A stretch of 47,276 nucleotides of DNA from contig NZ_AVPJ01000021.1 in NCBI RefSeq assembly GCF_000768705.1, forward strand, positions 1 to 47,276, read 5' to 3'. Source of the stretch: Knoellia sinensis KCTC 19936 (lineage in GTDB: Bacteria > Actinomycetota > Actinomycetes > Actinomycetales > Dermatophilaceae). Position 1 is the stretch's first letter. Each line of letters starts with the position of its first letter. A program made the position numbers and the translations under genes. Below, piece by piece: positions 2,144 through 45,939 of this stretch. The notes under the pieces are model-generated. The model saw only the letters and a list, made by a program, of their open reading frames with translations, was not told where the DNA came from and searched no databases.

Positions 2144-2187
2144 GCGTATGCCGTGTGGTCCCGCATCCGGGACCACACGGCATACGC
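2144..2187. terminator. Perfect 20-bp hairpin with CATC loop, built from inverted GTATGCCG copies
   Basis: The arms 2144-2163 and 2168-2187 are perfectly complementary around a CATC tetraloop. Each arm contains one GTATGCCG octamer in opposite orientation. There is no T tract, as is usual for actinobacterial factor-independent terminators. It follows the ArsR/SRPBCC/hypothetical unit and is probably its terminator. The same layout, GTATGCCG facing its reverse complement, recurs after sdhB. Confidence 0.7.
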
Positions 2188-2305
2188 GCCTCGCTTCCGC
2201 CATCGGCACGATGCTTCTCGCCATGATGGTGTCGATTCCACCTGCGGTCGTTCGTCACTGAGGTGAGGGGCGGGCGCACGGTCCGTCGCGACGACAGGAG
2301 CAGCC

Positions 2306-2659
2306 ATGGCGCAGTACCTCATCTACTTCAACCAGCAGTGGGTGGGTGACCACCCCGAGGAGTGGTTCGTGTCGCGGGTCGAACCATCGATGGCCGTCAT
2401 TGAGGAGATGAAGGAGGCCGGGGTCTACGTCTTTGCCGGTGGGCTCGAGGAGCACGGGCCCGTGCATGCGGCTGACGCGACGAGCGGCACGATCACCATC
2501 ACCGACGGACCCTTCGCCGAGACGACCGAGGTCCTGGGTGGCTTCACCGTGATCGACGTGCCTGACATCGAGACCGCGAAGTACTGGGCCGGCAGGGTGG
2601 CCGAAGGGTGCGGCTGGCCCCAGGAACTCCGCCGCATCGGAGCGGTGCCGCAGACCTAG
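2306..2659 (+). CDS. YCII/DGPF-domain protein
   Basis: A 117-residue protein of the YCII-related (DGPF) family, a ferredoxin-like alpha/beta fold. The family motif is visible as TDGPFAETTEVLGGF near residues 70-84, and the opening MAQYLIYFNQQW matches the first strand. Members are often found near ECF sigma factors or as possible small-molecule enzymes, but no reaction is established. ATG at 2306 has AGGAG 5-9 nt upstream. It stands alone on the plus strand after the 2144 hairpin. A further hairpin at 2687-2730 follows it. Confidence 0.85.
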   Translation: MAQYLIYFNQQWVGDHPEEWFVSRVEPSMAVIEEMKEAGVYVFAGGLEEHGPVHAADATSGTITITDGPFAETTEVLGGFTVIDVPDIETAKYWAGRVAEGCGWPQELRRIGAVPQT

Positions 2660-2686
2660 GCCGCAGGTCGACCACGCGGTCGCACC

Positions 2687-2730
2687 ATGTCCAGTTGAAC
2701 GCGCGCTCTAGCCCGCGTCCAACTGGACAT
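2687..2730. repeat. Intergenic hairpin with TGAACG..CG.TCTAG centre
   Basis: The 11-bp perfect arms ATGTCCAGTTG and CAACTGGACAT enclose a 22-nt loop. Where arm meets loop the sequence reads TGAACGCGCGCTCTAG, matching the centre of the tandem palindromes at 33504-33519 (TGAACGGTCGTTCTAG), although the stems differ completely. It lies 27 nt after the DGPF gene and before the tail of a pseudogene on the other strand, so it may be a bidirectional terminator. Confidence 0.6.
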
Positions 2731-2878
2731 TGGAACCGCCCATCGCCGCAATCCACCTGGGCCGGACGGTGCAGAGCGTCAACATGCGACGGTGGCGCTT
2801 GGCGAAGGCCCAGCCCCCAAGGGCATCGACACCAAGGCCGACTGGGCCGCCGTCACCAGGCTGACTCCGCCGACGCAC

Positions 2879-3074: not shown

Positions 3075-3114
3075 GTATACGGCGCGGACCCCATTCCGGG
3101 GCCACACGGCATAC
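3075..3114. repeat. Decayed copy of the GTATGCCG hairpin
   Basis: The right half, GGGGCCACACGGCATAC, closely matches the right arm of the 2144-2187 hairpin (GGGACCACACGGCATAC). The left half (from GTATAC at 3075) pairs only partly. It sits between the Band-7 relic and the DUF4126 gene and looks like the same element after mutation. Confidence 0.5.
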
Positions 3115-3222: not shown

Positions 3223-3840
3223 GTGATCGCCGCACTCACCGGTATGGGGCTGTCCGCCGCCGCGGGCCTCAATGCCTACATCCCGTTCATGATCGTTGCG
3301 CTCATCGCACGGTTCACCGACATCATCACGCTGCCCGAGACGTTCTCGTGGATCGAGTCGCCGTGGGCGATCGGCGTCGGCGCGATCCTGCTGCTCACCG
3401 AGGTCGTCCTCGACAAGATCCCCGCGGTCGACACGGTCAACGACGCGATCCAGACGTTCATCCGGCCGAGCATGGGGGGCCTGATCTTCGCGGCGACGAC
3501 CGCCGCCGAGGACCTCGACAAGTCGACGTGGATGGCCGAGAACCCGTGGATCGGTGTCGTGCTCGGCATCGTCGTCTCCGGCCTGGTCCACTCCGGCAAG
3601 ATGGCCGCCCGCCCGGCGATCAATGCCGGCACGCTCGGCGCCGGCGCACCGGTCGTGTCGACCGCCGAGGACGGCGCCTCCGTGGGTCTGTCGCTCGTCG
3701 CGATCTTCATCCCCATCCTCGTCATCGTCGCCCTGATCGCGCTGGCGTGGCTGCTCGTCTGGATGTGGCTCAAGGTCCGCAAGTGGCGCAAACGGCGAGA
3801 AGCGCGCATCGGTCCCGACACGGCATACCCGCGCGTCTGA
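3223..3840 (+). CDS. DUF4126-family membrane protein
   Basis: A 205-residue integral membrane protein. It matches DUF4126 from its first residues, with GMGLSAAAGLNAYIPFM, ARFTDIITLP, the helix-capping DKIPAVDTVNDAIQTFIRP, and GGLIF. There are about four hydrophobic segments: near residues 10-28, 48-65, 105-122, and a long one near 150-175 followed by a very basic tail (KVRKWRKRREAR). Members are widespread in actinobacteria and have no established function. The GTG start follows AGGAGG. The gene ends 48 nt before the next plus-strand membrane protein gene, which appears to have its own promoter. Confidence 0.85.
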   Translation: MIAALTGMGLSAAAGLNAYIPFMIVALIARFTDIITLPETFSWIESPWAIGVGAILLLTEVVLDKIPAVDTVNDAIQTFIRPSMGGLIFAATTAAEDLDKSTWMAENPWIGVVLGIVVSGLVHSGKMAARPAINAGTLGAGAPVVSTAEDGASVGLSLVAIFIPILVIVALIALAWLLVWMWLKVRKWRKRREARIGPDTAYPRV

Positions 3841-3888: not shown

Positions 3889-4662
3889 ATGGAGGCACCC
3901 GTCGAGCAGCGCGCCCTGACCCGTCGCGACCTGCTGTGGGAGACGGCTCTGGTCCTCGGCGTCTCGCTCGGTGCCTCGGCGATCTGGAGCGCGCTGTCGC
4001 TCGTCCGCAAGCTCACCGCCGGGCAGCCGCTGGGATCCCAGACCACGGCGATGAACTCGTCGGTGACGCCGGACCGGCCGTGGCTCGACCTGACCTATCA
4101 GCTCGTCGGCATCGGATTGGCCCTCGTGCCAGTCGTTCTGGCGCTCCACCTGTTGTCACGCGGGGATGCTCGCGCTCGCTTCGCGATCGGCTGGGACTGG
4201 ACGCAGCCGGCGCGAGACCTCGTGCGCGGCCTCGGTCTCGCGGCTCTCGTCGGCATCCCCGGTCTGGGCCTGTATGCCGTCGCGCGGGCTCTCGATCTCA
4301 ACACCACCATCGCCGCGGCGAACCTTGGTGAAACCTGGTGGGCGGTGCCCGTGCTCGTGCTGGCTGCGACGCAGAACGCGGTGCTCGAAGAAGTCGTGAT
4401 GGTGGGCTACCTCTTCACGCGCTGGTCGAAGGCAGGGTGGTCGACGACGCGAATCATCGTGTCCTCAGCACTGATCCGGGGTTCGTATCACCTGTATCAG
4501 GGGTTTGGCGGCTTCGTCGGCAACGTCATCATGGGGTTGTTGTTCGGTTGGCTCTACACGAAGACCAAGCGCGTCGGGCCGCTCGTCGTGGCTCACACGG
4601 TGCTCGATGTCGTGGCGTTCGTCGGCTACGCGCTCCTCAAGGACCGCCTCACCTGGCTCTGA
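3889..4662 (+). CDS. CPBP-family intramembrane metalloprotease homologue
   Basis: A 257-residue polytopic membrane protein of the CPBP (CAAX protease and bacteriocin-processing) family. The conserved core is in the C-terminal third: a di-glutamate motif (VLEEVVMVGYLF, near residues 164-175), the second motif RGSYHLYQGFGG near 197-208, and the final HTVLD near 235. The usual EExxxR arginine is replaced by a hydrophobic residue, as in a common actinobacterial subgroup, so activity cannot be assumed. It probably has seven or eight helices. It converges on the minus-strand AbiEi-like gene, with the palindrome at 4676-4745 between them. Confidence 0.85.
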   Translation: MEAPVEQRALTRRDLLWETALVLGVSLGASAIWSALSLVRKLTAGQPLGSQTTAMNSSVTPDRPWLDLTYQLVGIGLALVPVVLALHLLSRGDARARFAIGWDWTQPARDLVRGLGLAALVGIPGLGLYAVARALDLNTTIAAANLGETWWAVPVLVLAATQNAVLEEVVMVGYLFTRWSKAGWSTTRIIVSSALIRGSYHLYQGFGGFVGNVIMGLLFGWLYTKTKRVGPLVVAHTVLDVVAFVGYALLKDRLTWL

Positions 4663-5846: not shown

Positions 5847-5880
5847 CGGGCGGCATACCGAAAAGTCGGTATGCCGCCCG
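5847..5880 (-). terminator. sdhCAB operon terminator made of inverted GTATGCCG copies
   Basis: A perfect 15-bp stem (5847-5861 with 5866-5880) with an AAAG loop, 17 nt after the sdhB stop on the minus strand. Both arms carry the octamer (CGGCATAC at 5851, GTATGCCG at 5869). Position and stability support a terminator. Confidence 0.75.
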
Positions 5881-8710: not shown

Positions 8711-9418
8711 TCAGTTGATCAGGCCGAAGGCGATGGACAGCGGCGGGATGAGGAACGCGACGACGATGAGCGCCGCGACACCCAGGCCGAGGGTCTTGGC
8801 CCGCGCGTTGGCCTTGGGCGACCCGGTCAGGCCGAGCGTCTGCTGGGCGCTGTAGAAGCCGTGCTTGAGGTGCATGAAGAGCGCGACCATCGCGAGGACG
8901 TAGATGATCACCATCCACCAGACCTCGAAGCTCGCCACGACGAGCTGGTAGGGGTTGGCGGTGATCTCGGCGCCCTGCTTGTCGGCGTTGGGCGAGATCT
9001 TCACGATCGTGAAGTGGAGCAGGTGCCACACGACGAAGACGAGGATGAAGACCCCGCCCCAGCGCATCCACTGCGACGTGGCAGCGGTCTTCACGGCGGC
9101 GTACTTGGTGCGGCGAGCACTGCCGGCGCGGCTCCAGAGGCGGAACGCGGCATACACGTGACCGATGAGCGAGAGGATCAGGATGATCCGGACCGCCCAC
9201 AGGAGCCCGCCGTAGGGGAGCATCGGCTCACCGAACGTGCGCAGGTGGTGTGCGTAGGTGTTGAACGCCTCCTCTCCCGCGAGCGCCTTGAGGTTTCCGT
9301 AGGCGTGGAGGATCAGGTATCCGACGAAGACCAGGCCGGTCACTGCCATGAGCAGCTTCAGCGCGATCGTCGTGCTCCGCGCCGTGTTCGTGCGCGGGGA
9401 GAGCGTCGTCGTGGGCAT
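8711..9418 (-). CDS. sdhC: Succinate dehydrogenase cytochrome b subunit (B-type, single anchor)
   Basis: A 235-residue membrane anchor with five predicted helices, of the cytochrome b558 type in which one protein replaces SdhC plus SdhD. Likely haem ligands are among the histidines in YLILHAYGN (helix 1), IGHVYAAF, VVWHLLHFT and LFMHLKHGFYSAQQ. B-type enzymes usually reduce menaquinone. The start is ATG 9418, giving MPTTTLSP; a longer reading from 9451 lacks support. A TACCTT box ends 6 nt before this ATG, so the operon mRNA is probably leaderless. Confidence 0.95.
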   Translation of the reverse strand: MPTTTLSPRTNTARSTTIALKLLMAVTGLVFVGYLILHAYGNLKALAGEEAFNTYAHHLRTFGEPMLPYGGLLWAVRIILILSLIGHVYAAFRLWSRAGSARRTKYAAVKTAATSQWMRWGGVFILVFVVWHLLHFTIVKISPNADKQGAEITANPYQLVVASFEVWWMVIIYVLAMVALFMHLKHGFYSAQQTLGLTGSPKANARAKTLGLGVAALIVVAFLIPPLSIAFGLIN

Positions 9419-9516: not shown

Positions 9517-9529
9517 GTATGCCGTCCGC
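9517..9529 (+). repeat. Intergenic GTATGCCGTCCGC copy
   Basis: An exact copy of the 13-base extended motif, in the divergent spacer between sdhC and the DksA-like gene. A second GCCGTCCGCTC follows directly. Other intergenic copies are at 33651-33663 (minus) and 41585-41597 (plus). Confidence 0.6.
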
Positions 9530-10838: not shown

Positions 10839-11699
10839 TCAGGGTTTCTGGGCAGCGAGGGCGGCGTCGTAGAGCGCCTTCTTGGAGAGGCCCGTTGCAG
10901 CGGACACGTCGGCGCACACGTCCTTGAGTCGCTCCCCCGCCGCGACCCGATCCAGAATGCCCGTGAGGTTGCTCTCGACATCCCCGGCGACAGCAGCCGC
11001 CCCGGCCACCACCACGGTGATCTCGCCCTTCACCCCATCGTCGGCCCACGCCACGAGCTCCACCAACGACCCGCGCCGCACCTCTTCGTAGGTCTTCGTC
11101 AGTTCCCGGCACACCGCTGCCCGCCGCTCGCCCCCGAACACCGACTCCATCGCAGCCAAGGACTGGGCGATCCGGTGCGGCGCCTCGAAGAAGACCATCG
11201 TCCGCTTCTCCGCCTCGAGCGCCTTCAGCGCCCGCAACCGCTCACCGCCCTTGCGTGGCAGGAACCCCTCGAAGCAGAACCGGTCCACCGGCAGCCCCGA
11301 CACGGCCAACGCCATCAACACGGCCGAAGGCCCGGGCACACACGTCACCCGCACGTCGATCCCGATCGCGGCACTGACCAGGCGATACCCGGGGTCGGAG
11401 ACGGACGGCATACCGGCATCAGTGACGACGAGAACGCGAGCGCCTTCGCGAAGTCTCTCGACGAGATCGGCGGTTCGGGACGCCTCGTTGTGCTCGTGGT
11501 AGCTGACCACCGACCCCACAGGGTTCACGTCGAGCGCCTGGCACAGCCGTCGAAGCCGCCGGGTGTCCTCGGCCGCGATGACGTCGGCACCAGCCAGTTC
11601 GTCGGCCAAGCGCGGTGCCGCGTCGCGTGGGTCACCGATCGGCGTCGCCGCCAGGACGAGCACTCCTTCGCCCGAACTCGACACCGACGCCTCAGCCAT
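10839..11699 (-). CDS. rsmI: 16S rRNA (cytidine-1402-2'-O)-methyltransferase
   Basis: A 286-residue SAM-dependent tetrapyrrole-methylase-fold enzyme that 2'-O-methylates C1402 in the 16S rRNA P site. Family marks are LVLAATPIGDPRDAAPR near residue 15, AAEDTRRLRRL near 43, VSYHEHNE near 65, VLVVTDAGMPSVSDPGYRLV near 90, and FEGFLPRKGGER near 147. The C-terminal part (KGEITVVV then LTGILDRVAAGERLKDV and LSKKALYDAAL) is the usual RsmI tail. ATG 11699 is preceded by GGAGG. It is divergent from the mannosyltransferase gene, a pairing common in actinobacteria. Confidence 0.95.
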   Translation of the reverse strand: MAEASVSSSGEGVLVLAATPIGDPRDAAPRLADELAGADVIAAEDTRRLRRLCQALDVNPVGSVVSYHEHNEASRTADLVERLREGARVLVVTDAGMPSVSDPGYRLVSAAIGIDVRVTCVPGPSAVLMALAVSGLPVDRFCFEGFLPRKGGERLRALKALEAEKRTMVFFEAPHRIAQSLAAMESVFGGERRAAVCRELTKTYEEVRRGSLVELVAWADDGVKGEITVVVAGAAAVAGDVESNLTGILDRVAAGERLKDVCADVSAATGLSKKALYDAALAAQKP

Positions 11700-11760: not shown

Positions 11761-13314
11761 GTGACCCGGACCGACGAGCTGCACGCGCGCCTCCTCGGGA
11801 CCCGACCCACCGACACCCTCTGGGGCTGGCTCGGCCCCCTCTTCATCGCCGCTGTCGGTGGCTTCCTTCGCTTCTGGCAGCTCGGCCGACCGGACTCCCT
11901 CGTCTTCGACGAGACGTACTACGTCAAGCAGGGCTGGTCGCTCATCGAGCACGGCGTCGAGATGCGCGTCGAGGGCAAGAACGAGGACGCCGACAAGCTC
12001 TGGAACGCCGGCAACGTCGACGTCTTCTCCAACCAGGGCGACATGGTCGTGCACCCGCCCGTGGGCAAGTGGCTCATCGGTGCCGGCGAATGGCTGTTCG
12101 GGCCGACGAGCTCGTTCGGGTGGCGCTTCGCCGTTGCGGCTCTCGGAACCCTGTCGATCCTCATCCTCGGTCGGGTGGCGCGCCGGATTTTCGGCTCCAC
12201 CATGCTCGGCTGCATCGCCGCCCTCCTCCTCGCCGTCGAGGGCACGCACTTCGTGATGTCCCGCACCGGCATCCTCGACATCATCGTGTCGTTCTTCGCG
12301 CTCGCCGGGTTTGCCGCCCTCGTGGCCGACCGCGACACAAGTCGGGCAACTTTGGCGAGGCGCGTCGCGAGGCGAGCACCCGGCATACCTCTGAAAACGA
12401 CGCCGTGGCTGGGAGTCCGGCCCTGGCGCTGGGTCGCGGGGCTCATGCTCGGGCTCTGCGTCTCGACGAAGTGGTCGGGCCTGTTCTTCCTCGCGGTCTT
12501 CGGACTCATGACGGTCTTCTGGGACATGGGGGCACGCCGCGCGGTGGGGTCGCCTTCCTGGCTCCGCGACGGACTCTTCAAGGACGGCCCGTATGCCGCA
12601 CTGCAGCTTGTCGGGACCGCTGCAGTCACCTACGTGGTCTCGTGGTCCGGCTGGTTCGCGTCGAGCAACGGCTACCACCGGCAGTGGAACACCTTCCACC
12701 CCGGCGAGGGCATCCAGTGGTTGCCGGCGGTGCTGCGCAACTGGGTGAAGTACCACCAGGACATGTGGCAGTTCAACACCACGCTGTCGACGCCGCACTC
12801 GTACCAGTCGAACCCGTGGGGCTGGATGATCCAGGCCCGGCCGACATCGTTCTTCTATCAGGGGACGAAGGACGGCGAGGGGTCCTGCACCGTCGAGTCG
12901 TGCGCGCAGGCCGTCCACACGGTCGGCACAGTCTCGGTGTGGTGGGCCGGGATCGTCGCGTTGCTCGTGTGCGCCTTCTATTGGGCGGTGCGACGGGACT
13001 GGCGCGCCGGTGCGGTGCTCGCCGGGATCGTGGCCGGCTATCTGCCGTGGTTCATGTATCAGCACCGCACGATCTACGCCTTCTACACCGTGGCGTTCGA
13101 GCCGTGGGTGGTGCTCGCCATCGTGTTCTGCATCGGGCTGGTGCTCGGTGGGCCGTCGGCGTCGCCGGAGCGACGGAGGCTCGCCGCGATCGGGGTCGGC
13201 GCCTATCTGTTGCTGACGATCGGGCTGTTCGCGTGGTTCTACCCGCTGTATGCCGGCGAGGTCGTGCCCTATGAGAACTGGCTGCGCCTCATGTGGTTCC
13301 CGTCCTGGATCTGA
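11761..13314 (+). CDS. pmt: Dolichyl-phosphate-mannose-type protein O-mannosyltransferase (GT39)
   Basis: A 517-residue polytopic membrane enzyme of the PMT family, homologous to mycobacterial Rv1002c. It transfers mannose from polyprenyl-phosphate-mannose to secreted proteins. The first external loop holds the catalytic Asp-Glu in PDSLVFDETYYVKQGWS (near residue 45), and HPPVGKWLIG follows near 98. Late features include NPWGWMIQARPTSFFY and YQHRTIYAFYT, then final membrane helices ending FPSWI. The start is GTG 11761, supported by the -10 box; the open frame upstream runs through rsmI in antisense. An Arg-rich loop near residues 190-215 containing GTATGCCG looks longer than usual. Confidence 0.93.
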   Translation: MTRTDELHARLLGTRPTDTLWGWLGPLFIAAVGGFLRFWQLGRPDSLVFDETYYVKQGWSLIEHGVEMRVEGKNEDADKLWNAGNVDVFSNQGDMVVHPPVGKWLIGAGEWLFGPTSSFGWRFAVAALGTLSILILGRVARRIFGSTMLGCIAALLLAVEGTHFVMSRTGILDIIVSFFALAGFAALVADRDTSRATLARRVARRAPGIPLKTTPWLGVRPWRWVAGLMLGLCVSTKWSGLFFLAVFGLMTVFWDMGARRAVGSPSWLRDGLFKDGPYAALQLVGTAAVTYVVSWSGWFASSNGYHRQWNTFHPGEGIQWLPAVLRNWVKYHQDMWQFNTTLSTPHSYQSNPWGWMIQARPTSFFYQGTKDGEGSCTVESCAQAVHTVGTVSVWWAGIVALLVCAFYWAVRRDWRAGAVLAGIVAGYLPWFMYQHRTIYAFYTVAFEPWVVLAIVFCIGLVLGGPSASPERRRLAAIGVGAYLLLTIGLFAWFYPLYAGEVVPYENWLRLMWFPSWI

Positions 13315-13449: not shown

Positions 13450-16400
13450 GTGTTCTTCTTCCCCGGTGACGACGCGATCGTCCTCAGCCCACACGACCTG
13501 CGCACGGCAGCGGAGTGCGAATTCCGTTTCGTCCGCGAGCTCGACGTGCTGCTGGGGCGCGCTCCCCGGCCCGAGGTCGAGGACAGCCCGATGCAACAGC
13601 GCATCATCGACCTCGGACTCGCCCACGAGAGCTTGGAACTCCGCCGCCTCAACGCGGACCACCCGGGTCAGGTTCGAGGGCTGAACCGACCGGCCGAACA
13701 CACGCGCGCGGGCTACGGCGCGGCGATGGACGAGACGCTCGCGGCGCTCGCGTCCGATGCCGAGGTCCTGTCCCAGCCCGTGATCTTCGACGGGCAGCTC
13801 TTCGGATACGCCGACTTCATCGAGCGCACACCCCAGGGATGGCTCGTCAGCGATACCAAGTTGGCCCGTTCTGCCAACGTGCCGGCTCTCCTACAGATCG
13901 CGGCGTACGCGGCGGTGCTTCAGGCCCACGACGTTCCCACCGCTCCGGTGGCCCGACTCGTCCTTGGCTCGGGACTGCGCCAGGACTACCCGCTCGGGGA
14001 GATCGTTCCCGTCTTCCACAGGCGCTGGTCTCGGCTGAATCGTCTGGTAGAGGACCACAGGGCCGACACGGGACCGGGCTCGTGGGGTGACGACCGGTGG
14101 ATGGCCTGCGGCCGATGCGAAGTCTGCGACGCCGAGGTGGCCGCCCACCGCGACCTGCTGCTCGTGGCGGGCATGCGTACGACGACTCGTCGTCGCCTCC
14201 TGGACTCGGATGTGCGGACCATCGACGAGCTCGCCGTCGCCGAGGGCCCCATCACCGACATCCAGACGAACCGCCTCGACAGGCTGCGCTCACAGGCCCG
14301 GCTGCAGTTGCGTGCCGAGGCCGAAGGGTCGGTGCCCCATGAGGTCATCGACGAACAGTCGATCCGACGACTCCCCCGACCCAGCGCCGGCGACATCTTC
14401 TTCGACTTCGAGGGCGATCCACTCTGGACCGAAGCGGGGTCGAGCGTTTGGGGGCTTGAGTACCTCTTCGGACTCGTCGAGGTCGACACCGAGACGCCAG
14501 TCTTTCGGGCGTTCTGGGCCCATGACCGCGCCCAGGAGAAGCAGGCGTTGATCGACTTCGTCGACTACGTCGAGAAGCGGCGCGCGAACTGGCCCGACCT
14601 GCACATCTACCACTACGCCCCCTACGAGACGGCAGCCCTGAAGCGACTGGCCGCGCGGCACTCCGTCTGTGAGGACGCCGTCGATCAGCTCCTGAGGGAC
14701 GGTGTGTTCGTCGACCTCTACGCCACCGTCCGCGCCGCGATCCGTGTGGGGCAGCGCTCCTACTCGATCAAGAAGCTCGAGCCGCTCTACATGGAGGCAC
14801 GCACCGCAGACCTGCAAAAGGGTGACGATTCGATCGTCGAGTACCACCGCTTCATCATGGCCAGGATCTTGGAGCGCGACAGCGACGCCGACGAGATCAT
14901 CCGCGGCATCGCGGCCTACAACGAGGAGGACTGCGTCTCGACATGGTTGCTGCGCGACTGGCTCATCCGGCAGCTCGACGACGGTGTCGTCGGCGCGCCG
15001 GGCGAGATGATCGAGCCGCGTGAGGTCAAAGCAGAGCGGCAAGCCGCGCTGTCTCTCGAGTCCGACCTCCGGTCGTTGGTGGATGAGATCACACCGGCGG
15101 ACCGCACTCCCGAGAACCACGCAGTCGCCCTCGTGGCCTCGGCCGTCCTGTTCCATGCACGAGAGGACAAACCGTTCTGGTGGGAGCACTACGACCGGAT
15201 CGCGCAGCCCGTCGACAACTGGCAGCGCGCCAGTGGTGTCGCCGTGGTCGAAGGTCCGGCCGAACTCATCGAGGGGTGGCACAAGCCGACGCCGCGTAGT
15301 GGCTCCAAGCGCCGCTTCACCGTGGTCGTCAACCCGGTCGGGGGAACGCTGTTGGAGTTGGGAAACGTCACTGCCCTGTATGCCGCTCCGCCTGCCTTCC
15401 CGCCGGCGAAGGACCACCAGGACACCAATGCCCACGCCAAGAGCCCCAGCGTTGCTGAGGTCATCGAGGCCGAGGAGGTCATCGCGGACAACGGCCAGGT
15501 CCGCCAGCGGCTCACGATCGTCGAGAACGCCCCCAACAAGACCGAGGTCCACACTTTCCCGCTGGCTCTCGTGCCGACGGGCACGATCGGCACCAAGTCG
15601 ATCGACGCCGCAATCGCCGAGATTGCGCAGGAAGTCAAGGAGTCGCACCCCGCACTTCCGCAGCGAAGCGGCATCGACGTGCTGCTGCGGAGGGCTCCGC
15701 GCCTCCGCGGTGGTGGGGCGCTTCCCTCCGTTGGTGTCGGTCACAGTCGCTTCGTCGATGCCATCACAGATGCCCTGCTCGGCATGGACGACTCCTACGT
15801 CGCGGTCCAGGGCCCGCCCGGCACGGGCAAGACCTACGTCGGCGCACGGGTCATCGCTCGGCTCGTCCGGGATCACGGCTGGAAGGTCGGTGTCTGTTCG
15901 CAGGGCCACGCGGCCATCGAGAACGTCCTGTCCGCAGTGGTCGCCGCTGGGCTCCCCTCCGATCAGGTTGGCAAGGTTCCCAAGCACACCGAAACGCCCT
16001 CGTGGACTCCGCTGGGCAAGTCCGACGACCTGGCGGGCTTCATCGCCGACCTCGCCCATGAGGGCAAGGGGTGCGTCGTCGGTGGCACCGCTTGGGACCT
16101 CACCAACACCAAGCGCGTCGAGCGTCTTGGACTCGACCTCGTCGTCATCGACGAGGCGGGCCAGTTCTCCCTCGCCAAGACTCTCGCCGTCTCGGCGGCG
16201 GGCTCGCGACTGCTGTTGCTGGGAGACCCCGCGCAACTCCCCCAGGTCTCCCAAGGAGTGCACCCGGACCCCGTCGACGAGTCGGCCCTCGGCTGGCTCG
16301 CGGACGGGGCCTCACTCGTCCCGCCAGAGCTCGGCTACTTCCTCGAGACGACGTGGCGCATGCATCCGCGACTCACCGAGGCGGTGTCACACCTCTCGTA

Positions 16401-33650: not shown

Positions 33651-33663
33651 GCGGACGGCATAC
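33651..33663 (-). repeat. Intergenic GTATGCCGTCCGC copy (minus strand)
   Basis: GCGGACGGCATAC is an exact reverse-complement copy of the 13-base extended motif, 65 nt before the fmdB start. Confidence 0.6.
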
Positions 33664-37389: not shown

Positions 37390-37719
37390 TCAGTCCCAGT
37401 GGGGCGGACGATTCTCGCGCAGCCAGCGGGCCGACGCCTCGCGGTCGCGTTGTTCGCCCCAACCCTCGTCCGTGTCGTCCGTGGTCTGATCCACCCGGCG
37501 TTTCGGCCGGGGCTTTCCTCCCGTATGCCGTCCGCCCGCCTCTGACGCGGCGCGCGCCGTCGCTTCGGCCGCGTCCCCCTTGGCACTGTCAGCCTCGGAG
37601 GGCGCTGCCTCGCTCGGGTCGGGGTCGGGGCGCTTCACACTTGGGCGGCTGGAGGTCAGGCCCTCGTCCGAGCCGACCCGCTGGGGAACGCTCGATGCGC
37701 GACGAGAACGTCGCGTCAT
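37390..37719 (-). CDS. Small disordered conserved protein coupled to the DUF4011 helicase
   Basis: A 109-residue hydrophilic protein rich in Arg, Asp, Glu and Ala, with no hydrophobic core until the end, which reads ASARWLRENRPPHWD. That closing motif recurs in small actinobacterial proteins as I recall them, so the gene is probably real. Its ATG overlaps the stop of the 1280-aa helicase gene (ATGA), so translation is coupled and a joint role is likely. Part of the coding sequence is a GTATGCCGTCCGCCC repeat (from 37523). Function unknown. Confidence 0.65.
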   Translation of the reverse strand: MTRRSRRASSVPQRVGSDEGLTSSRPSVKRPDPDPSEAAPSEADSAKGDAAEATARAASEAGGRHTGGKPRPKRRVDQTTDDTDEGWGEQRDREASARWLRENRPPHWD

Positions 37720-40700
37720 GACCCGCCGCCACCCCGCTCGGCCAGGGCTCGGATCCGGGCGACATCGCGCGCCGGGTCCCGGAACGCGTCACGAGTCCAG
37801 ACCCGCACGTGCTGCCAGCCCAGGCGGCCGAGGTGCTCGGCACGCAGGCGGTCGCGGTCCCGGGAGTGGGGCATCGCGGCATACTCCGGGCCGTCTGACT
37901 CGACGGCCACTGCGAGACGTCCACGGTGGTTCGGGTCCTCCACGGCAAGGTCGATGGGGTCGGCAGACGCTCCGTAGCGCTCGTGCACGACGAGGCCGCC
38001 GGCTCGCAGGCGACGCGCGAACTCGGCCATGACGACCGAGTGCCCCGCGGAGTCCGAGGCGGCTGGCCCAGGCGCCGCAGCCCCCGCCGCCCCAGCACCC
38101 GGCACCCCAGCGCTCGACTCAGCCTCGCTCGCCGCTGCAGCGGCGGTCGGCTTCCCGGCCGTGTGGGCCTCGGCAGTGCCTGCTGCCGCGTGGGCGAGGT
38201 AGTCGCGCAGCATGAGCGCACCACGCGCCTTGAGTCGTTGTGGGTCCAGTTCGTCCGCGCTGATCGACGACACGACCGTCATCCGCTTCTTGGCCCGGGT
38301 GATGGCGACGTTGAGGCGCCGCTCACCGCCGTCCATGTTGAGCGGCCCGAAACGATGGAGCACGCGGCCGTGCGCCGTCTTGCCGTAGCCGACCGAGAGG
38401 ATGATGGCGTCCCGCTCGTCGCCCTGGACGCGCTCGAGGTTCTTGATGAAGAAGCGCTCGTGCACGTCCTCGGCGAAGAAGGCCGCCGTCGGGGCGTCGA
38501 CATTCACGAGGGCGCGGCGCAGGGCGTCGTCGAGGCGTTGGGTGTGGGCCAACCCGAGGGCAATCACGCCGAGGGTCTCGCCTGGGCGGACGCGCGCGTG
38601 CTCGAGGACCAGTTCGATGACTCGATCCACCTCGGCCTGCGTCGTCTCCACGCTGCCAGCGCCGTCGGTGACCACACCTGCCCCGTCGACGAGTTCGTGT
38701 CGCAGGACCGACGCCCGGCCCGTCCCTGGGAAGGTCACGAGAGACCCGTCATAGACCTGCTGGTTGGCGAACGAGATGAGGCGCTCGTCCTGCGACCGGT
38801 AGTGCCACGAGAGTCGCCGGCTCGGCAGCGTGGCGGCAAGGACGTCGAGGATGGATTCGACGCCCTCGGTGAGGGCGTCGTCGGGCGAGGCATCCCCCTC
38901 GTCGTGGGCGGTCGTGAAGAACGACGTCGGCGGCAACTGGCGAGAGTCGCCTGCCAGGACGACCTGACGGGCCCGCGAGATGGCAGACACAGCTTCGGCG
39001 GGCGGGATCTGCGAGGCCTCGTCGAAGACGACGACGTCGAACCACACCCCGGGAGGTAGCACGGACGCGACGACGAGAGGGCTCATCACCCAGCACGGGC
39101 GGGTCGCCGTGAGCAGTTCCCCGGCAGCGGGCAGGAGGTCCCGCAGCGGCCGGTGCCGACGCGACTTGGCGCCCTCGGCGCGCAGCAGGCTCTCGAGCTC
39201 CGGCGAGTCTCCGAGCACCCGGTCGACGTTGGCGCGGACGGCGGCGCGCACGCGAGATGCGTTCTGTCGCAGCACTTCTCGATCGGCCGCGGCGAACTCG
39301 CTCACCGTCCGCCGCAGGTCTTCACCGTCATGGGCACCCACCCGAGCGTCACGCAGGGCGATGTCGTCGAGGACCGAACTCCACCACACGAAGTCGGCTT
39401 CGCTGGCGACGTCCTCCGCCGGGACCCCACGGGACGCCAGGTCCTCGATGAGGGCACCCAGTCCGGCCTCATGCATGGACTCGACCGGCCCGATGATCGA
39501 GGGCACCACCGCCAGCCGATCGGGTGCGTCGGCGAGATCCTGAAGCCGGGCACTGAGTTCGTCCCGTGGCACGTCGAGGAGAGAGACGCGCTCGGACGAG
39601 GACGACGGCACGCGCTCGTCGAGCCATTCGAGATCGCTGGCGAGCCCGGCATACGTGTCCGCAGCGCGGTCGAGTTCGGCCGGCATCTCGGGTCGCCCTC
39701 CGGCACCGGCCATCTGCTTCCAGGCGCTGCGCTGCTCGTTGGCCTCGACCAGTGCGGCGTGCAGGTCGGCAGGTGGCCGGCCGGGGCGCACCAGGCGCCG
39801 AACCTGCCGCTTGAGGCTCAGCCGCTCCCACCATCCGAGGTTCGATCCCACCGACGAGCGATAGGCGGTCGTTCCGGTGGCGGCGACGAAGTCACCGAGT
39901 GGGACATCGAAGATCTCGGGACGGAAGGTCTCGAGGGTGTCGCGCACTCGGCCAACCGTGTCGAGGATGCGTCCCCAGTCCCGCACGGTTCGGGCCTGTG
40001 GAAGCCGCAGCCCGGAGAAGACGTCCGCGATCGAGGACCCGACCTCGTCGACCCGCGAACCGGACCACCGCTCCACGAGTTCGCGCGCCCGCACGGCATC
40101 GTCGGGGGTGCGCACGGTCGCGCCGTACCACGGGTCGGAGCCGTGGTCGGTGCGCCAGGCCCCCAAGGAGGCGACTCGCGTCAACTCGCGCGTGAGGTCC
40201 TCGTAGCGGTCCCGCGGCAGCGACTGGAGCGCTTCCCCGCGGATGCGGACGCGCGAGTGGGGCGGGTGCTCGACGGACCCGAGGGCACTGATGGCCTCCT
40301 GGATGTCGTGGACCGACACACCCCAGGGGCGGCGGGGCTCGTGCATGGCGTCGCGGTGCTCACGCAGCGTGGCGGCCGCTGCGCGCAGCCGGTCGATGTC
40401 GCGGCTCGGCGGATCGGCGGGCTTCGGGGTCCTGCCGGGAAGCGCGTCAGCGAACTCCGACGCAATGCGTCGACGTCCCCGCGCACCGTCGTGAAGGTCG
40501 AGGACGAGGTCGCCGAGACCGATCCGATCGAGCCGTCCGACGACGGCGTCGATGGCGGCACGCTTCTCGGCGACGAAGAGCACGCGTTTGCCGTCGGCGG
40601 CGAGCGCCGAGACGAGATTGGCGATGGTCTGTGACTTGCCCGTCCCGGGGGGACCGTGGATCACGAGGTGCGCACCGGACCGGGCAGCCTCGATGGCCTC

Positions 40701-41584: not shown

Positions 41585-41597
41585 GTATGCCGTCCGC
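41585..41597 (+). repeat. Intergenic GTATGCCGTCCGC copy
   Basis: An exact copy of the 13-base motif, just upstream of the DUF4011-helicase promoter and between two minus-strand genes. Confidence 0.6.
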
Positions 41598-41692: not shown

Positions 41693-42967
41693 CTACGCAG
41701 GCACCTTGTCGCGCTCACGCAGGAGCACCGCGGATGCGCCGATCGACCCGGCGACGACGAGCGCGCCGAGCGCCAGCACGTTGAAGCTCGCGAAGTCGAC
41801 GATCACGCCTGCGAGCGCCCCACCGAGGCCGGCCGCGAGCCCCATGACGAGGTCGCTCGCACCCTGCGCGCCGGGGCGCTCCGCCGGTGGGACGGCACCG
41901 GTGAGCAGAGTCGAACCGGACACGAGCGTGCAGGACCATCCGAGCCCGAGCAGGAACAGCGCGATGAGCAGGCGGTTGGAGTGACCCATGGGTGCCGTGG
42001 ACGCCAGCAGGGTGGCCGTGACGAGGATGCCCGAGCCGATCATGGCCACGACACGACCACCGAGTCGGTCGACCGCCATGCCGGTCAGTGGCGAGAAGGC
42101 GAACATCCCGAGGATGTGCATGCTGATGACGAAGCCGATCACGGTGAGGTCCGCGTGACCGTGACGCATGTGCAGCGGCGTCATGACCATGACACTCACC
42201 ATCGTCACGTGGCCCAGCGCGAGCGTGATGACCCCGAGCAGCGCGACGGGTCGGGCGGCGATGACCCGCAGACCACGCCTCACGCTTCCGTGGATGACGT
42301 GTGCGCCCCCATCGCCGGCAGCGACAGCGCGCCGCCGCGACTCGAGGAGCGGGTCCGGCCGCAGGCGCACCAGGAGCACCACGATCGCCAGGCTCAGCCC
42401 GATCAGGGAGAAGACGAAGGGACCGGTGAGACGCGGGATCCCGAGGAGGTCGGAAACGGGCTCGCTGGGGCCGACGAGGTTGGGCCCCAGGACACTGCCG
42501 ATCGTCGTCGCCCACACGACGAGACTCAGGTCGCGCCCACGGTGCGACGGATCGGCAAGGTCGGCAGCGGCATACCTCGCTTGGTTGTTGGAGGCGGTGG
42601 AACCGCCGAACAGGAGGCTCGCGACGAGCAACAGCGCAAAGCTGCCGACGATCCCGGACGCGATGAGGCCCAGAGCCCCGATGAAGGACAGGACATAACC
42701 CAGGGCCAGCCCCGGGCGACGACCGCGGGCGGCGCTCAGCCGGGCCATGGGGACGGCGATGAGCGCGGAGCCGATGACCTGGAACGTCGATCCGAGCCCG
42801 GCGTAGGTCGGCGAGCCGGAGACCTCCTCGGCAAGCAACGCACCCACCGCCACACCACTCGCGAGCGAGATGCCGCCGAGGATCTGCGACATCGACAGGG
42901 TCGCCACTGTGCGCCGCTGCACGGGATCACGTGGCGTGGTCACCTCGGGCGCTTCGGCTGCAGTCAC
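41693..42967 (-). CDS. Major facilitator superfamily transporter
   Basis: A 424-residue, twelve-helix MFS protein. The first half has GAALLAEE-type helix 1 following SMSQILGGISLASGVAVG, then the MFS loop PMARLSAARGRRPGLALGY near residue 72, and NNQARYAAADLADPSHRGRDLSL near 130. The second half repeats this with FSPLTGMAVDRLGGRVVAM. It resembles drug/metabolite exporters; the substrate is unknown. The start is given as GTG 42967 (VTAAEAPEV) because CATACT lies 7 nt upstream; ATG 42997 would add ten residues encoded by a GTATGCCGTCCGCC repeat and lacks a ribosome binding site. Confidence 0.85.
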   Translation of the reverse strand: MTAAEAPEVTTPRDPVQRRTVATLSMSQILGGISLASGVAVGALLAEEVSGSPTYAGLGSTFQVIGSALIAVPMARLSAARGRRPGLALGYVLSFIGALGLIASGIVGSFALLLVASLLFGGSTASNNQARYAAADLADPSHRGRDLSLVVWATTIGSVLGPNLVGPSEPVSDLLGIPRLTGPFVFSLIGLSLAIVVLLVRLRPDPLLESRRRAVAAGDGGAHVIHGSVRRGLRVIAARPVALLGVITLALGHVTMVSVMVMTPLHMRHGHADLTVIGFVISMHILGMFAFSPLTGMAVDRLGGRVVAMIGSGILVTATLLASTAPMGHSNRLLIALFLLGLGWSCTLVSGSTLLTGAVPPAERPGAQGASDLVMGLAAGLGGALAGVIVDFASFNVLALGALVVAGSIGASAVLLRERDKVPA

Positions 42968-43025
42968 CCGACCGAGTATGCCGTCCGCCCCCGACATCGA
43001 TTCGAGCGCCCGCAGCGCTGTCCTC

Positions 43026-43128: not shown

Positions 43129-43211
43129 CCCTGTCTGACCTGCGAAAACGCGACAGTGCGTCCGTCCGACCCCCCGCTGGAGGCCCGAAATGGGCACCAA
43201 ATGGGCACATC

Positions 43212-44297
43212 TCAGATCTCCCGCGCCGCTTCGCCGGCCGTGTAGAGGCCGTCCAGCGCGGCCGCGATGGTGTCGAGCTCGTCGTCGTAGAGGTGGGCGT
43301 AGATGCGCGCCGTGGTGGTGATGGACTCGTGGCCCATCGCCTTCTGGATGAAGCGCAAGTCGGCGCCGGCCATCCGCGCCAGGCTTCCGAACGTGCGCCG
43401 CAGGTCGTGCGGAGTGGCGGCCATGCCGAGCTGCTCGAGGGCCCTGTCGAAGCCGGCTCGGCGACGCCAGTTCCGCACCCGCAGGTAGTCCCCCTCCGGT
43501 GAGGCGAAGACGAGTGCATCCCGCGGCCGGCCGGCCAGCCTCACCGTCAGTGCCGGGACAAGGAGTTGAGGAATCGGGACGTAGCGATGCCCTGCTCGGC
43601 TCTTGGGCTGGTCGACGTCGATCCGACCATCGACCTCGGTGGCGCGCTGCACGACGTGGACTCGTCTGCGCGTGAGGTTGACGTCCTCGACCCGGAGAGC
43701 CGCCAGCTCGGACCACCGCAGCCCCATATAGGCCAGAGACAGCACGATGTCGCGGTCCTGCGGCATGGCCTCAGCGAGGGCGTGGACCTCCTCCACGGTG
43801 AGAATGCGTTCACGGATGGGCGCGCGTTTGGGCAGACGGACGCCCCGCGCGACGTTGACCGGCACCCGACGGGTCGCGGCCGCGTAGTCGAGCACCCTCG
43901 ACAGGACTCCATGCGCCTTGCGGACCGTGTCCGTCCCGAGCCGGGCGCTCAAGGCGGTCACCCACTCCGCCACGTCGGCGTGCTCGATCTTGGCGACGGG
44001 CCAAGCGCCGAAGGTGGGCTCGATGTGTTTCCACGCGTGGCGGTAGCCGGCCTGGGTGGTCGCCCTGAGATGGCTGATCCCTCCGCTCTGGTACTCCGCC
44101 CAGACGGCACCGAGCGTCGCTCTGCCCCGTTGCGGATCGACCCAGTCGCCGCGGCGCCGCTGCGAGAGCACCTGCCTCTCGTAGTCCGCCGCTTCCGACC
44201 GTCGGGCGAAGGAGCGGGAGCGGAACCGGCCGTCGGGCGTGCGGTAGCGCACCCGGTAGGAGTAGGTCCCGTCCCGCCGCTCGCGACGCTCGATCAT
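43212..44297 (-). CDS. int: Phage-type tyrosine recombinase (integrase)
   Basis: A 361-residue integrase. Residues ~1-60 form an arm-binding N-terminus (RRDGTYSYRVRYRTPDGRFRSRSF), ~65-145 a SAM-like core-binding domain, and ~165-350 the catalytic domain. Catalytic residues are visible: Arg in YMGLRWSELAAL, a Lys in DQPKSRAGH, HDLRRTFGSLA, GHESITTTARIYAHLY with the final Tyr. The start is ATG 44297, overlapping the excisionase stop (ATGA). It lies next to tRNA-Arg(CCT), its likely target, and would catalyse integration and, with the excisionase, excision. Confidence 0.93.
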   Translation of the reverse strand: MIERRERRDGTYSYRVRYRTPDGRFRSRSFARRSEAADYERQVLSQRRRGDWVDPQRGRATLGAVWAEYQSGGISHLRATTQAGYRHAWKHIEPTFGAWPVAKIEHADVAEWVTALSARLGTDTVRKAHGVLSRVLDYAAATRRVPVNVARGVRLPKRAPIRERILTVEEVHALAEAMPQDRDIVLSLAYMGLRWSELAALRVEDVNLTRRRVHVVQRATEVDGRIDVDQPKSRAGHRYVPIPQLLVPALTVRLAGRPRDALVFASPEGDYLRVRNWRRRAGFDRALEQLGMAATPHDLRRTFGSLARMAGADLRFIQKAMGHESITTTARIYAHLYDDELDTIAAALDGLYTAGEAAREI

Positions 44298-44512
44298 CTC
44301 GACCGAGCTCCAGCCGCCCTGGACGCGTTGATCCACGCCAGGACTTCCTCGGCGTCGAACCGTCGATGCTTGCCGAGCTTGAACGACGGCGGGCCGCCGC
44401 CCCTTACTGCCCAGTGGTGCACGGTCGAGACCGGCACTCCGCACACCTCGGCGACATCCCGCACGGTCATCAGGGAGGGGAACTCCCTCACGGTCTTTCG
44501 CACTGCCCTCAC
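44294..44512 (-). CDS. xis: Excisionase-family helix-turn-helix protein
   Basis: A 72-residue MerR-like/excisionase DNA-binding protein. The winged helix is LMTVRDVAEVCGVPVSTVHHWAVRGGGPPSFKLGKHRRFDAEEVLAWI, the common pattern of recombination directionality factors and small helix_turn_helix_17 proteins. The GTG start overlaps the rep stop (GTGA) and the stop overlaps the int start (ATGA), so all three genes are translated as a chain. ATG 44470 would give a shorter protein beginning MTVRDVAEV. Confidence 0.85.
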   Translation of the reverse strand: MRAVRKTVREFPSLMTVRDVAEVCGVPVSTVHHWAVRGGGPPSFKLGKHRRFDAEEVLAWINASRAAGARSR

Positions 44513-45939
44513 TTCCTTTCTGCTGGCTGGCTCTTCGCTTCTCTGCTGACGAATTGCGTTGGGAGAGAGCGGATGCGAGAGAGGGCTGCTGATCGGACGG
44601 CCTCCGCCGCCTCTGCCGTCGAGAGGTACCCGCGACCGACGTACCTGAAGGCGGAGACGTGGACGAAGCCCTCCGGCGGCTCGTCCTCGTCGAGGACGCG
44701 TCGGACATCCGCGTCCGGGTCGAGGCGTGCAGGGCGTCGGTGGTGCAGCCGTCGCAGTCGTCGCAGCTGGCCGAAGGTCACCGAGTACGCCCGTGACTTC
44801 GTGATCGGGTGACCCCGATAGCCCAATGTCGCATGTCGGTCAGCGATCCGGGCGAGGTTGTCCACAGACCCCGCGAGCTGCTCGGCCGCCGCGATGATGC
44901 GGACGACGTGGGGGCTGGCACCGAGCAGACGTGCATGTTCCGAAGACCGGACTCTGCCGCTCAGGCCGAAGTCCTCGGTGCTCTTCGTCAGGTACTTCGC
45001 GAGGTAGGCCGCCACCTGCTCCGGATGGGCGGCGGATCGCGAACGGTCGTCGCGTGCCGTGGCTCCACTGATCGTGCGTGTGTCCACCTGCCTCCCCCAC
45101 CGGAGTTCGTATGCCGTCCCCTCGAGACCGGGTTCGGTGAGAGTCACGCTCGCCGCGGCGTCGCGGATGGCGTCCTCAAGATCGGCCACAGTGAGCGGCA
45201 ACGATGACGGCCCGCCGTCGGGGCCGTCTGGACCGTCCAGCCGGAACGGCGCATGGACATGGATCAGCCCGCGCGACTGGAACTCGACCACCTTCGAGTA
45301 GGAGATCCGGCACGTCGCGCGGAACGTTGTGAGGTCGACCTCCGCCTTCTTGGCGAGTGCGCGCTGCAGCGCGATGGTGAACCGACGCCAGAGCTCGGGA
45401 GCGTGCCACTGCCACAGGACATGGCCGACGTAGTCGTAGCACTGCCCGCACAGCGGCTGCCCGACTTGCGGGTCGCTCTCCTCGTGACGCTTCGAGCACC
45501 ACAGCGGGCGCCCGTGCGGACAGAGGGGATGGTCGCGCCGTGGGCGACACAGCCCTGTTCGGCGTTTGCCGTGGACCGCGCCGAAGGATGGTGCGGTGAG
45601 GGTGACGAAGGTGCACGGGTGGTCCGCGACGTTCGCAGGCACGCCCTTGCCGCCGGCCAACCCGCACATGAGCAGGTGCCACGCATCGCCCTTGTACTCA
45701 TGGCTGCACGACGGGCAGACGCTCGCCCGACGGTTGCCGCATCGCACGTAGGTGCGGCCGTCCAGCTCTTGGTCGGACGAGTAGACCGTGGTGATCTCAC
45801 CGGTGGCGGTGTTCACCGACTGGCGCGAGCCGACGAGCCTGATCGGACGGGAGCAGCCGCGGGCACGGCTTTCGGCGTCGCCCACTCCGGCCGCGCCGAG
45901 GACGGCATCCGAAGGTCCGACGTCGAGCATCTTCGACAC
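44509..45939 (-). CDS. rep: Replication initiator, RepSA/HUH rolling-circle type
   Basis: A 476-residue initiator like those of actinomycete integrative elements. The N-terminal half has a zinc-binding region (VRCGNRRASVCPSCSHEYKGDAW near 65-87 and further Cys pairs such as CGQCYDYVGH). The HUH metal motif is in RGLIHVHAPFRLDG near 245, and the downstream AAYLAKYLTKS near 335 is the expected catalytic Tyr region. It would nick one strand to start rolling-circle replication of the excised element. The start is given as GTG 45939, 6 nt from GGGAG; other starts at 45930, 45942 or 46002 are possible. One GTATGCCG lies at 45109. Confidence 0.88.
   Translation of the reverse strand: MSKMLDVGPSDAVLGAAGVGDAESRARGCSRPIRLVGSRQSVNTATGEITTVYSSDQELDGRTYVRCGNRRASVCPSCSHEYKGDAWHLLMCGLAGGKGVPANVADHPCTFVTLTAPSFGAVHGKRRTGLCRPRRDHPLCPHGRPLWCSKRHEESDPQVGQPLCGQCYDYVGHVLWQWHAPELWRRFTIALQRALAKKAEVDLTTFRATCRISYSKVVEFQSRGLIHVHAPFRLDGPDGPDGGPSSLPLTVADLEDAIRDAAASVTLTEPGLEGTAYELRWGRQVDTRTISGATARDDRSRSAAHPEQVAAYLAKYLTKSTEDFGLSGRVRSSEHARLLGASPHVVRIIAAAEQLAGSVDNLARIADRHATLGYRGHPITKSRAYSVTFGQLRRLRRLHHRRPARLDPDADVRRVLDEDEPPEGFVHVSAFRYVGRGYLSTAEAAEAVRSAALSRIRSLPTQFVSREAKSQPAERK

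What the first reader, a model, noticed from the sequence alone, without database searches (positions are those of the whole stretch)
2146..45116. GTATGCCG is strongly over-represented: a candidate uptake, HIP1-like or modification signal
By eye I find 34 copies. Plus strand: 2146, 4272, 5869, 9517, 12591, 13248, 15378, 16398, 21741, 23072, 25513, 28908, 31907, 33402, 37523, 41585, 42976, 45109. Minus strand (CGGCATAC): 2178, 3107, 3821, 5851, 9148, 11406, 12381, 16850, 19725, 21713, 26988, 28834, 33656, 37877, 39647, 42568. At about 70% GC, base composition predicts roughly two. In genes it is read in several frames (Tyr-Ala, Ala-Tyr, Met-Pro, Gly-Ile), so protein sequence does not explain it. 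The even strand split argues against a polarised signal such as KOPS. Neisseria/Haemophilus uptake sequences and cyanobacterial HIP1 behave this way; I know of no equivalent described for actinobacteria.
Basis: partly seen in the sequence, partly recalled or inferred. Interest (0 to 1): 0.85.

Follow-up and report, generated by a model that had tools for sequence, protein, structure and literature searches.

The report
Genome-wide DNA uptake-like tag in Knoellia
A short DNA word, GTATGCCG, is written about every 1,600 letters through the genomes of Knoellia and many related soil actinobacteria, is conserved where it stands, and is replaced by sister words in some relatives, much like the self-labels that a few Gram-negative bacteria use to choose which loose DNA to take up.

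Summary
Genome-wide there are 2,485 copies in 3.99 Mb, 1,251/1,234 by strand; the reversed word occurs 68 times. In 400 kb of a complete genome of the same genus it is the most enriched 8-mer, without replication polarity. Codon choice, sites more conserved than flanks, inverted close pairs and scarcity in foreign-looking DNA show selection on the word itself. The organism is a Knoellia (inferred). The word is abundant in 108 of 186 genomes of its family and in none of 273 from other families of the order. Many relatives without it carry another word: GTACGCCG, GGATGCCG, GTATGCGG or the unrelated CGAAGGGGG. These are hallmarks of Neisseria DNA uptake sequences and their dialects. I propose a DNA-uptake self-label, perhaps read by an Flp/Tad-pilus competence machine. 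Uptake was not tested, no receptor was found, and competence genes also occur where no word was found. RecBCD-Chi, KOPS and HIP1 fit poorly. Nine paper searches found no report of such a signal in actinobacteria.

The parts
2146..2153 (+). GTATGCCG copy; with 2178 forms an inverted repeat (long hairpin)
2178..2185 (-). GTATGCCG copy, partner of 2146
3107..3114 (-). GTATGCCG copy
3821..3828 (-). GTATGCCG copy
4272..4279 (+). GTATGCCG copy
5851..5858 (-). GTATGCCG copy; with 5869 forms a hairpin, intergenic by the crude gene calls
5869..5876 (+). GTATGCCG copy, partner of 5851
9148..9155 (-). GTATGCCG copy
9517..9524 (+). GTATGCCG copy
11406..11413 (-). GTATGCCG copy
12381..12388 (-). GTATGCCG copy
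12591..12598 (+). GTATGCCG copy
13248..13255 (+). GTATGCCG copy
15378..15385 (+). GTATGCCG copy
16398..16405 (+). GTATGCCG copy; conserved in K. locipacati, the only one aligned here
16850..16857 (-). GTATGCCG copy; conserved in K. locipacati, the only one aligned here
19725..19732 (-). GTATGCCG copy
21713..21720 (-). GTATGCCG copy, inverted pair with 21741; conserved in 4 of 4 aligned Knoellia
21741..21748 (+). GTATGCCG copy, partner of 21713; conserved in 4 of 4 aligned Knoellia
23072..23079 (+). GTATGCCG copy; conserved in 3 of 3 aligned Knoellia
25513..25520 (+). GTATGCCG copy; conserved in 4 of 5 aligned Knoellia
26988..26995 (-). GTATGCCG copy; conserved in 5 of 5 aligned Knoellia
28834..28841 (-). 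GTATGCCG copy, inverted pair with 28908; conserved in 5 of 5 aligned Knoellia
28908..28915 (+). GTATGCCG copy, partner of 28834; conserved in 2 of 5 aligned Knoellia
31907..31914 (+). GTATGCCG copy; conserved in 2 of 5 aligned Knoellia
33402..33409 (+). GTATGCCG copy; conserved in 2 of 5 aligned Knoellia
33656..33663 (-). GTATGCCG copy; conserved in 4 of 4 aligned Knoellia
37523..37530 (+). GTATGCCG copy; conserved in 1 of 3 aligned Knoellia
37877..37884 (-). GTATGCCG copy; conserved in 4 of 5 aligned Knoellia
39647..39654 (-). GTATGCCG copy; conserved in 1 of 2 aligned Knoellia
41585..41592 (+). GTATGCCG copy
42568..42575 (-). GTATGCCG copy
42976..42983 (+). GTATGCCG copy
45109..45116 (+). 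GTATGCCG copy, inside the RepSA-like gene of a presumed integrative element

Best explanation
GTATGCCG is a DNA-uptake self-label: a DUS/USS-like signal of a Gram-positive lineage. During natural transformation a cell-surface receptor would bind DNA carrying the word, so DNA of the own kind is taken up preferentially and recombined by homology. Repeated uptake spreads and maintains copies, which are therefore conserved, equal on both strands, scarce in newly acquired DNA and often paired as hairpins. Related genera carry variants (GTACGCCG, GGATGCCG, GTATGCGG), as expected if receptor and word co-evolve as dialects. Shown here: the over-representation, absence of replication polarity, site conservation, nucleotide-level codon choice, inverted pairing, scarcity in foreign-looking DNA, dialects and restriction to one family within the order sampled. 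Inferred: that uptake is the cause, and that the receptor belongs to an Flp/Tad-type competence pilus acting with ComEA and ComEC.
For: Genome-wide excess. Strand split not significant in 107 of 108 high genomes, pooled 101,176 vs 101,512; leading-strand share 115 of 230. 24 of 26 neighbour pairs within 100 bp are inverted, p = 1e-5. 43 of 57 site-by-species comparisons exactly conserved, against 0.18 to 0.22 for other 8-mers in four of the five species and 0.11 in K. koreensis; core identity 422/456 against flanks 1,956/2,676. Codon choice. The 17 least native-looking 4-kb tiles hold 1.1 copies on average against 2.8 in the other 94, p = 7e-5; poor stretches hold integrase, transposase and resolvase genes. 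Dialects. ComEC in 180 of 186 genomes, DprA in 80 of 80 tested, the T2SSE ATPase family, which includes TadA, in 185 of 186; ComEA, ComFC and Flp/Tad genes in the own genome, named from sequence by eye. Similar traits are reported for Neisseria DUS: 71% exactly conserved, inverted-repeat terminators, absence from recently acquired genes (PMC2397512, abstract and passages), dialects (PMC3630211, passages). Flp-pilus transformation is known in the actinobacterium Micrococcus luteus (PMC6370729, passages).
Against: No uptake experiment. ComEC, DprA and T2SSE ATPases are also in genomes where no word was found (g37, g53 and most of g46), so they do not explain presence or absence. No receptor identified. 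One-mismatch copies are not in excess overall (290 against 276 expected at order 3), although molecular drive might leave decay intermediates. In some high genomes the reversed word is raised too: the ratio to it is 2.5 to 70, median 11.6. Terrabacter Root85 vs Ter38 conserve only 7 of 11 sites, no better than background 0.65 at 94% identity. A presumed integrative element in the window carries a copy, at 45109. Conserved sites alone would fit any selected signal.
Confidence: 0.7

Rival explanations
1. A Chi-like recombination signal: a helicase-nuclease (RecBCD, AddAB or AdnAB) stops degrading and starts recombination at GTATGCCG.
For: Chi sites are also over-represented, asymmetric, short and different between species (recalled). 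AdnAB and AddAB were not examined here, so this rival is only tested for RecBCD.
Against: RecC (PF04257) is not found in any of the 9 genomes of the own genus; it is present both in word-poor genomes (15 of 16 g27, all g35 and g37, G008, G083) and in word-rich g14, g40 and most g41. No leading-strand bias: 115 of 230; E. coli Chi is strongly skewed (recalled). Inverted pairing is not a Chi trait (recalled).
Confidence: 0.1
2. A HIP1-like or modification signal: a DNA methyltransferase or a methylation-dependent repair system creates and keeps the word.
For: HIP1 is an over-represented octamer with lineage-specific alternates tied to methylases (PMC4390886, abstract).
Against: HIP1 and its alternates are palindromic; GTATGCCG and the variants found are asymmetric. 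Inverted pairing and scarcity in foreign-looking DNA are not explained. No methylase was searched for, so the link itself is untested.
Confidence: 0.08
3. A chromosome-organisation signal (KOPS-like translocation guide, nucleoid or segregation protein site).
For: Spread over the chromosome: mean spacing 1,569 bp, near-exponential.
Against: No polarity about the assumed origin and terminus. Changing words between sister genera and low copy numbers within otherwise rich genera (G008, G083, G113) fit a housekeeping site poorly.
Confidence: 0.06
4. A by-product of composition, codon pairs or a dispersed repeat family.
For: Coding copies prefer the Tyr-Ala and Ala-Tyr frames.
Against: 251 vs 11.5 at order 3; TAT share 102/112 in context vs 522/2,021 elsewhere; flanks of copies share little sequence; core more conserved than flanks; other families of the order at background.
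Confidence: 0.01

Closest known systems
Neisseriaceae DNA uptake sequence (DUS) and its dialects
   Same: Asymmetric short word, thousands of copies, inverted pairs, highly conserved sites in more variable flanks, scarce in new DNA, variants sharing a core between relatives, and relatives without any (PMC3630211 passages; PMC2397512 abstract and passages).
   Different: Different phylum and cell envelope, unrelated word, 8 bp not 10-12, no sign of a type IVa pilus in the genus (PilM_2 PF11104 over cut-off in only 6 of 186 genomes, none of them of the own genus g1), no receptor known here, uptake not shown. The string ATGCCG shared with the neisserial AT-DUS (recalled) is likely chance.
Pasteurellaceae uptake signal sequence (USS)
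   Same: Over-represented asymmetric word tied to competence; flanking A/T preference (recalled for USS; here only a weak excess of A at -10 to -7).
   Different: Word and phylum differ; uptake not tested here. The USS receptor is only predicted (ComN, PMC12616744, title and abstract in the listing).
Cyanobacterial HIP1
   Same: Over-represented octamer with alternates in relatives.
   Different: Palindromic and linked to methylases (PMC4390886 abstract).
Flp-pilus natural transformation of Micrococcus luteus
   Same: Actinobacterium with ComEA, ComEC and Flp/Tad pili (PMC6370729 passages); the own genome has all three, its Flp/Tad locus beside comFC.
   Different: The term uptake sequence does not occur in PMC4322843 (term search only); M. 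luteus was not examined for a word here by name.

Membership tests
DNA uptake sequence (DUS/USS) | Genome-wide over-representation far above a Markov expectation | tested here: met
DNA uptake sequence (DUS/USS) | Asymmetric word on both strands without replication polarity | tested here: met
   (115 of 230 leading)
DNA uptake sequence (DUS/USS) | Frequent close inverted pairs forming hairpins | tested here: met
   24 of 26 pairs within 100 bp
DNA uptake sequence (DUS/USS) | Sites conserved more than flanks | tested here: met
   exception one Terrabacter pair
DNA uptake sequence (DUS/USS) | Scarce in recently acquired DNA | tested here: met
   small sample, and one copy lies in a presumed mobile element of the window
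DNA uptake sequence (DUS/USS) | Dialects in relatives with shared core | tested here: met
   CGAAGGGGG does not share the core
DNA uptake sequence (DUS/USS) | Presence tracks competence genes | tested here: inconclusive
   ComEC 180 of 186, T2SSE 185 of 186, DprA 80 of 80, with or without the word
DNA uptake sequence (DUS/USS) | Word raises DNA uptake or transformation | not testable with these tools
   needs experiment
DNA uptake sequence (DUS/USS) | Specific surface receptor | not tested
   no candidate found
RecBCD Chi | RecBCD present | tested here: not met
   RecC not found in 9 of 9 genomes of the genus; AdnAB and AddAB not examined
RecBCD Chi | Leading-strand bias | tested here: not met
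HIP1 | Palindromic octamer | tested here: not met
   the word is asymmetric (sequence itself)
HIP1 | Cognate methylase | not tested
   no methylase search or kinetics
KOPS | Polarity from origin to terminus | tested here: not met

The most novel reading that the evidence does not exclude
The first DNA uptake sequences outside Gram-negative bacteria: a whole actinobacterial family marks its genomes with lineage-specific uptake words, in at least five dialects including the unrelated CGAAGGGGG, read by an Flp/Tad-type competence pilus rather than a type IVa pilus. Word and receptor would set mating groups for transformation among soil actinobacteria, and the uptake-label strategy would have arisen independently of Neisseria and Haemophilus.
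Probability: 0.55. Interest if true: 0.93.

Novelty: new variant of a known kind. Interest (0 to 1): 0.86.

Why it matters
Uptake sequences are known, as far as I recall, mainly from two Gram-negative families, and whether the strategy is a rare accident is open. A family-wide set of words with several dialects and within-genus switches in actinobacteria would give an independent case, imply widespread natural transformation in environmental actinobacteria that are hard to manipulate, give a practical handle for their genetics (add the word to DNA), and allow word-receptor co-evolution to be tested in a new machine.

Tried and rejected
ComEC presence as the switch: near-universal, 180 of 186. 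Type IVa pilus: PilM_2 found in 7 of 186, 6 over cut-off, none in the own genus. T2SSE ATPase: 185 of 186, and its copy counts are limited by the tool's first look (10 candidates scored per genome), so counts were not used. RecC/Chi: wrong distribution. DprA: 80 of 80. Conversion of sites in place between dialects: of 10, 8 and 8 aligned GTATGCCG sites of H. xanthopallidus and two Terrabacter, none reads GTATGCCG in Humibacillus sp. DSM 29435 and none of those listed reads GGATGCCG. Dialect search in 20 genomes low in GTATGCCG gave no clear word at 40 kb in G001, G008, G011, G021, G022, G038, G095, G098, G184, G019, nor in G160 at 140 kb; part of the printed output was cut and the missing genomes were reprinted in shorter form. 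CGGGCAGTT in G053 turned out to be mostly short tandem arrays. Scans of pooled named genera outside the family pool orthologous loci and can be inflated by relatedness. The paper search for the reverse complement found 2,606 papers, 20 listed; the listed ones look like primer and adapter text.

Limits: gene calls were made with a crude codon-score script, not a standard gene finder. Conservation counts repeat 15 window sites over five species and are not independent. The origin and terminus are assumed from the contig start and GC skew.


Full report
Observation. In the window it is the most over-represented 8-mer at Markov order 2, 34 against 0.96. In the whole assembly (3,987,063 bp in 61 contigs) there are 1,251 forward and 1,234 reverse copies, while the same letters read backwards occur 35 and 33 times.

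Organism. The UDP-glucose pyrophosphorylase-like protein of the window (Pfam UDPGP) matches Knoellia flava and K. locipacati at 85% identity. I infer a Knoellia species; the nine genomes labelled g1 would be that genus. The family is the one holding Knoellia, Janibacter, Terrabacter, Phycicoccus and Intrasporangium (Dermatophilaceae/Intrasporangiaceae, name recalled).

Not composition, codons or a repeat. In 20 evenly spaced 20-kb stretches of G078, a complete genome of the same genus, there are 251 copies against 11.5 at order 3, far above the other 8-mers. The flanks of the copies share little, so it is not a dispersed repeat element; weak preferences are against A at +8 and for A at -10 to -7. 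One-mismatch variants are at 290 against 276 expected. In genes called by a crude script, 225 of 285 copies are coding, 55 intergenic and 5 at edges, with 84% of the DNA coding. Tyr is spelled TAT in 102 of 112 cases where the spelling completes the word, and in 522 of 2,021 elsewhere; for the reverse strand, GCA is used in 72 of 103 against 3 of 154. The protein allows the word; something acting on DNA chooses it.

Geometry. Spacing is near-exponential with mean 1,569 bp over 285 copies in the window and G078 stretches. There is no replication polarity: 115 of 230 copies lie on the presumed leading strand, leaving out the block at position 1. Of 26 neighbouring pairs within 100 bp, 24 are inverted (p = 1e-5), some as long hairpins such as window 2146/2178 and 5851/5869.

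Conservation. Between the window and five named Knoellia, 43 of 57 aligned site-by-species comparisons keep the word exactly (9/12, 9/13, 12/14, 10/11, 3/7), while other 8-mers are kept at 0.11 to 0.22. Core identity is 422/456, flanks 1,956/2,676. In 12 further comparisons of named loci that both carry the word, 50 to 92% of aligned sites are kept, above background except for Terrabacter Root85 vs Ter38, which keep 7 of 11, equal to background at 94% identity. Where the partner lacks the word, none is kept in five comparisons: 0 of 10, 0 of 8 and 0 of 8 against Humibacillus sp. DSM 29435, which uses GGATGCCG, at 78% identity (background about 0.2), and 0 of 6 and 0 of 7 for Phycicoccus Soil802 against two Phycicoccus loci without it. 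The GGATGCCG sites of that Humibacillus are kept in 5, 6 and 7 of 14 alignments with the three partners, and in the other direction in 4 of 4, 5 of 5 and 6 of 6. This also fits an ancestor that used GGATGCCG and a later gain of GTATGCCG.

Foreign-looking DNA. In 111 tiles of 4 kb, the 17 with the least native codon score hold 1.1 copies on average, the other 94 hold 2.8 (p = 7e-5); over all tiles the rank correlation is weak (0.23, p = 0.014). Poor stretches include L129, with phage integrase and IS110-type and rve transposase genes, and L132, with a resolvase-type integrase. Against this, the presumed integrative element at the right end of the window carries a copy at 45109.

Distribution and dialects. 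Of 186 genomes of the family, 108 (31 genera) carry at least 100 copies per Mb, 13 carry 40 to 100 and 65 (22 genera) fewer than 40; three genera contain both high and low members. In the high genomes the ratio to the reversed word is 2.5 to 70, median 11.6. Of 297 genomes drawn from the order, 24 are of the own family; by reading the list, none of the other 273 reaches 100 per Mb, the highest being about 80 with a similar count of the reversed word. An unbiased k-mer search in 40-140 kb from 20 genomes low in the word found sister words. Family-wide counts then gave: GGATGCCG at 2,099 or more in 7 of 186 genomes (g9, g15, g51), two of which also carry about 1,200 GTATGCCG, an apparent mixed state, with weaker excess in G153 and G158; GTACGCCG at 1,125 or more in 10 of 186 (g3, g5, g6, g7, g32, g34), with intermediate counts in some others; GTATGCGG in 4 of 51 genomes tested, the four of g13; and CGAAGGGGG in all 16 g27 and all 3 g35, 797 to 1,939 copies, at most 80 elsewhere. 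g27 is probably Janibacter, because three of four named Janibacter loci also show that word. CGATGCGG in g31 (G082, 36 vs 6 in 40 kb) was not counted family-wide. By these thresholds 146 of 186 genomes carry one of the five counted words. In g35 (G092) CGAAGGGGG also sits in hairpins (9 of 13 close pairs inverted); in g27 (G053) this is weaker (4 of 7), and its site conservation between named Janibacter loci is modest, and zero against J. massiliensis, whose locus lacks it. Whether it is the same kind of signal is open.

Machinery. ComEC is found in 180 of 186 genomes, DprA in 80 of 80 tested, the T2SSE ATPase family in 185 of 186. The own genome has ComEA-ComEC and an Flp/Tad locus between lpqB-mtrBA and comFC-hpf-secA (ComEC, the T2SSE ATPase, the other names assigned from sequence by eye). 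The Tad cluster lies beside mtrAB-lpqB in 3 of the 9 other genomes from which a pilus stretch was taken (G083, G138, G160). None of these genes separates genomes with the word from those without, so they permit but do not prove an uptake role. RecC is not found in the genus and occurs in both word-poor and word-rich genera.

Comparison. Passages of PMC2397512 report for Neisseria DUS: 71% exactly conserved sites, 97% identity against about 85%, inverted-repeat terminators and absence from recently acquired genes. Passages of PMC3630211 report eight dialects with a shared CTG core and genomes in the family with none. The match in kind is close; the lineage, word and pilus type differ. Nine searches for a report in actinobacteria found none in what was listed (the library lacks most subscription journals and preprints).

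Verdict. A real, selected, genome-wide signal (near certain). Best reading: a DNA-uptake self-label with dialects, 0.7.

Noticed in passing
window 43212-46002: Phage-type integrase beside a RepSA-like replication initiator (pSAM2 family), so probably an integrated actinomycete conjugative element near the window's right end.
   Followed up: no
genera g27 and g35, e.g. L190-L194 (G053) and L200-L204 (G092): CGAAGGGGG is over-represented about 15-fold at order 2, on both strands, and in G092 often sits in hairpins; no sequence kinship with GTATGCCG.
   Followed up: partly
G053 stretches L168, L169, L190-L194: CGGGCAGTT occurs in short arrays, often at 32-bp steps, 23 copies in 140 kb.
   Followed up: no
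L067, L083, L091, L092, L102, L113 (Demequina): GGCCGATGC 48 against 5 expected in pooled orthologous loci; possibly another genome-wide word, or relatedness.
   Followed up: no
G010:C17:129291-130273 and G011:C1:31851-32101: GTATGCGG repeats at about 61-bp and 81-bp steps, local tandem arrays.
   Followed up: no
L210-L211 (own genome, contig C60): An Flp/Tad pilus locus sits between lpqB-mtrBA and comFC-hpf-secA; only one GTATGCCG lies in the called pilus genes.
   Followed up: partly
L172, L173, L205-L209 (G083): Besides GTACGCCG (42 vs 16), GTACGGCG (69 vs 16) and GTACGACG (75 vs 17) are raised in 140 kb: perhaps a degenerate GTACGNCG word.
   Followed up: no
window 37716-41558: Large helicase with an MTES_1575-type endonuclease domain, of a kind seen in defence genes (recalled).
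   Followed up: no
family-wide: RecC is patchy: 89 of 186 genomes; not found in four g4 genomes but found in G008, the g4 member poor in GTATGCCG.
   Followed up: no
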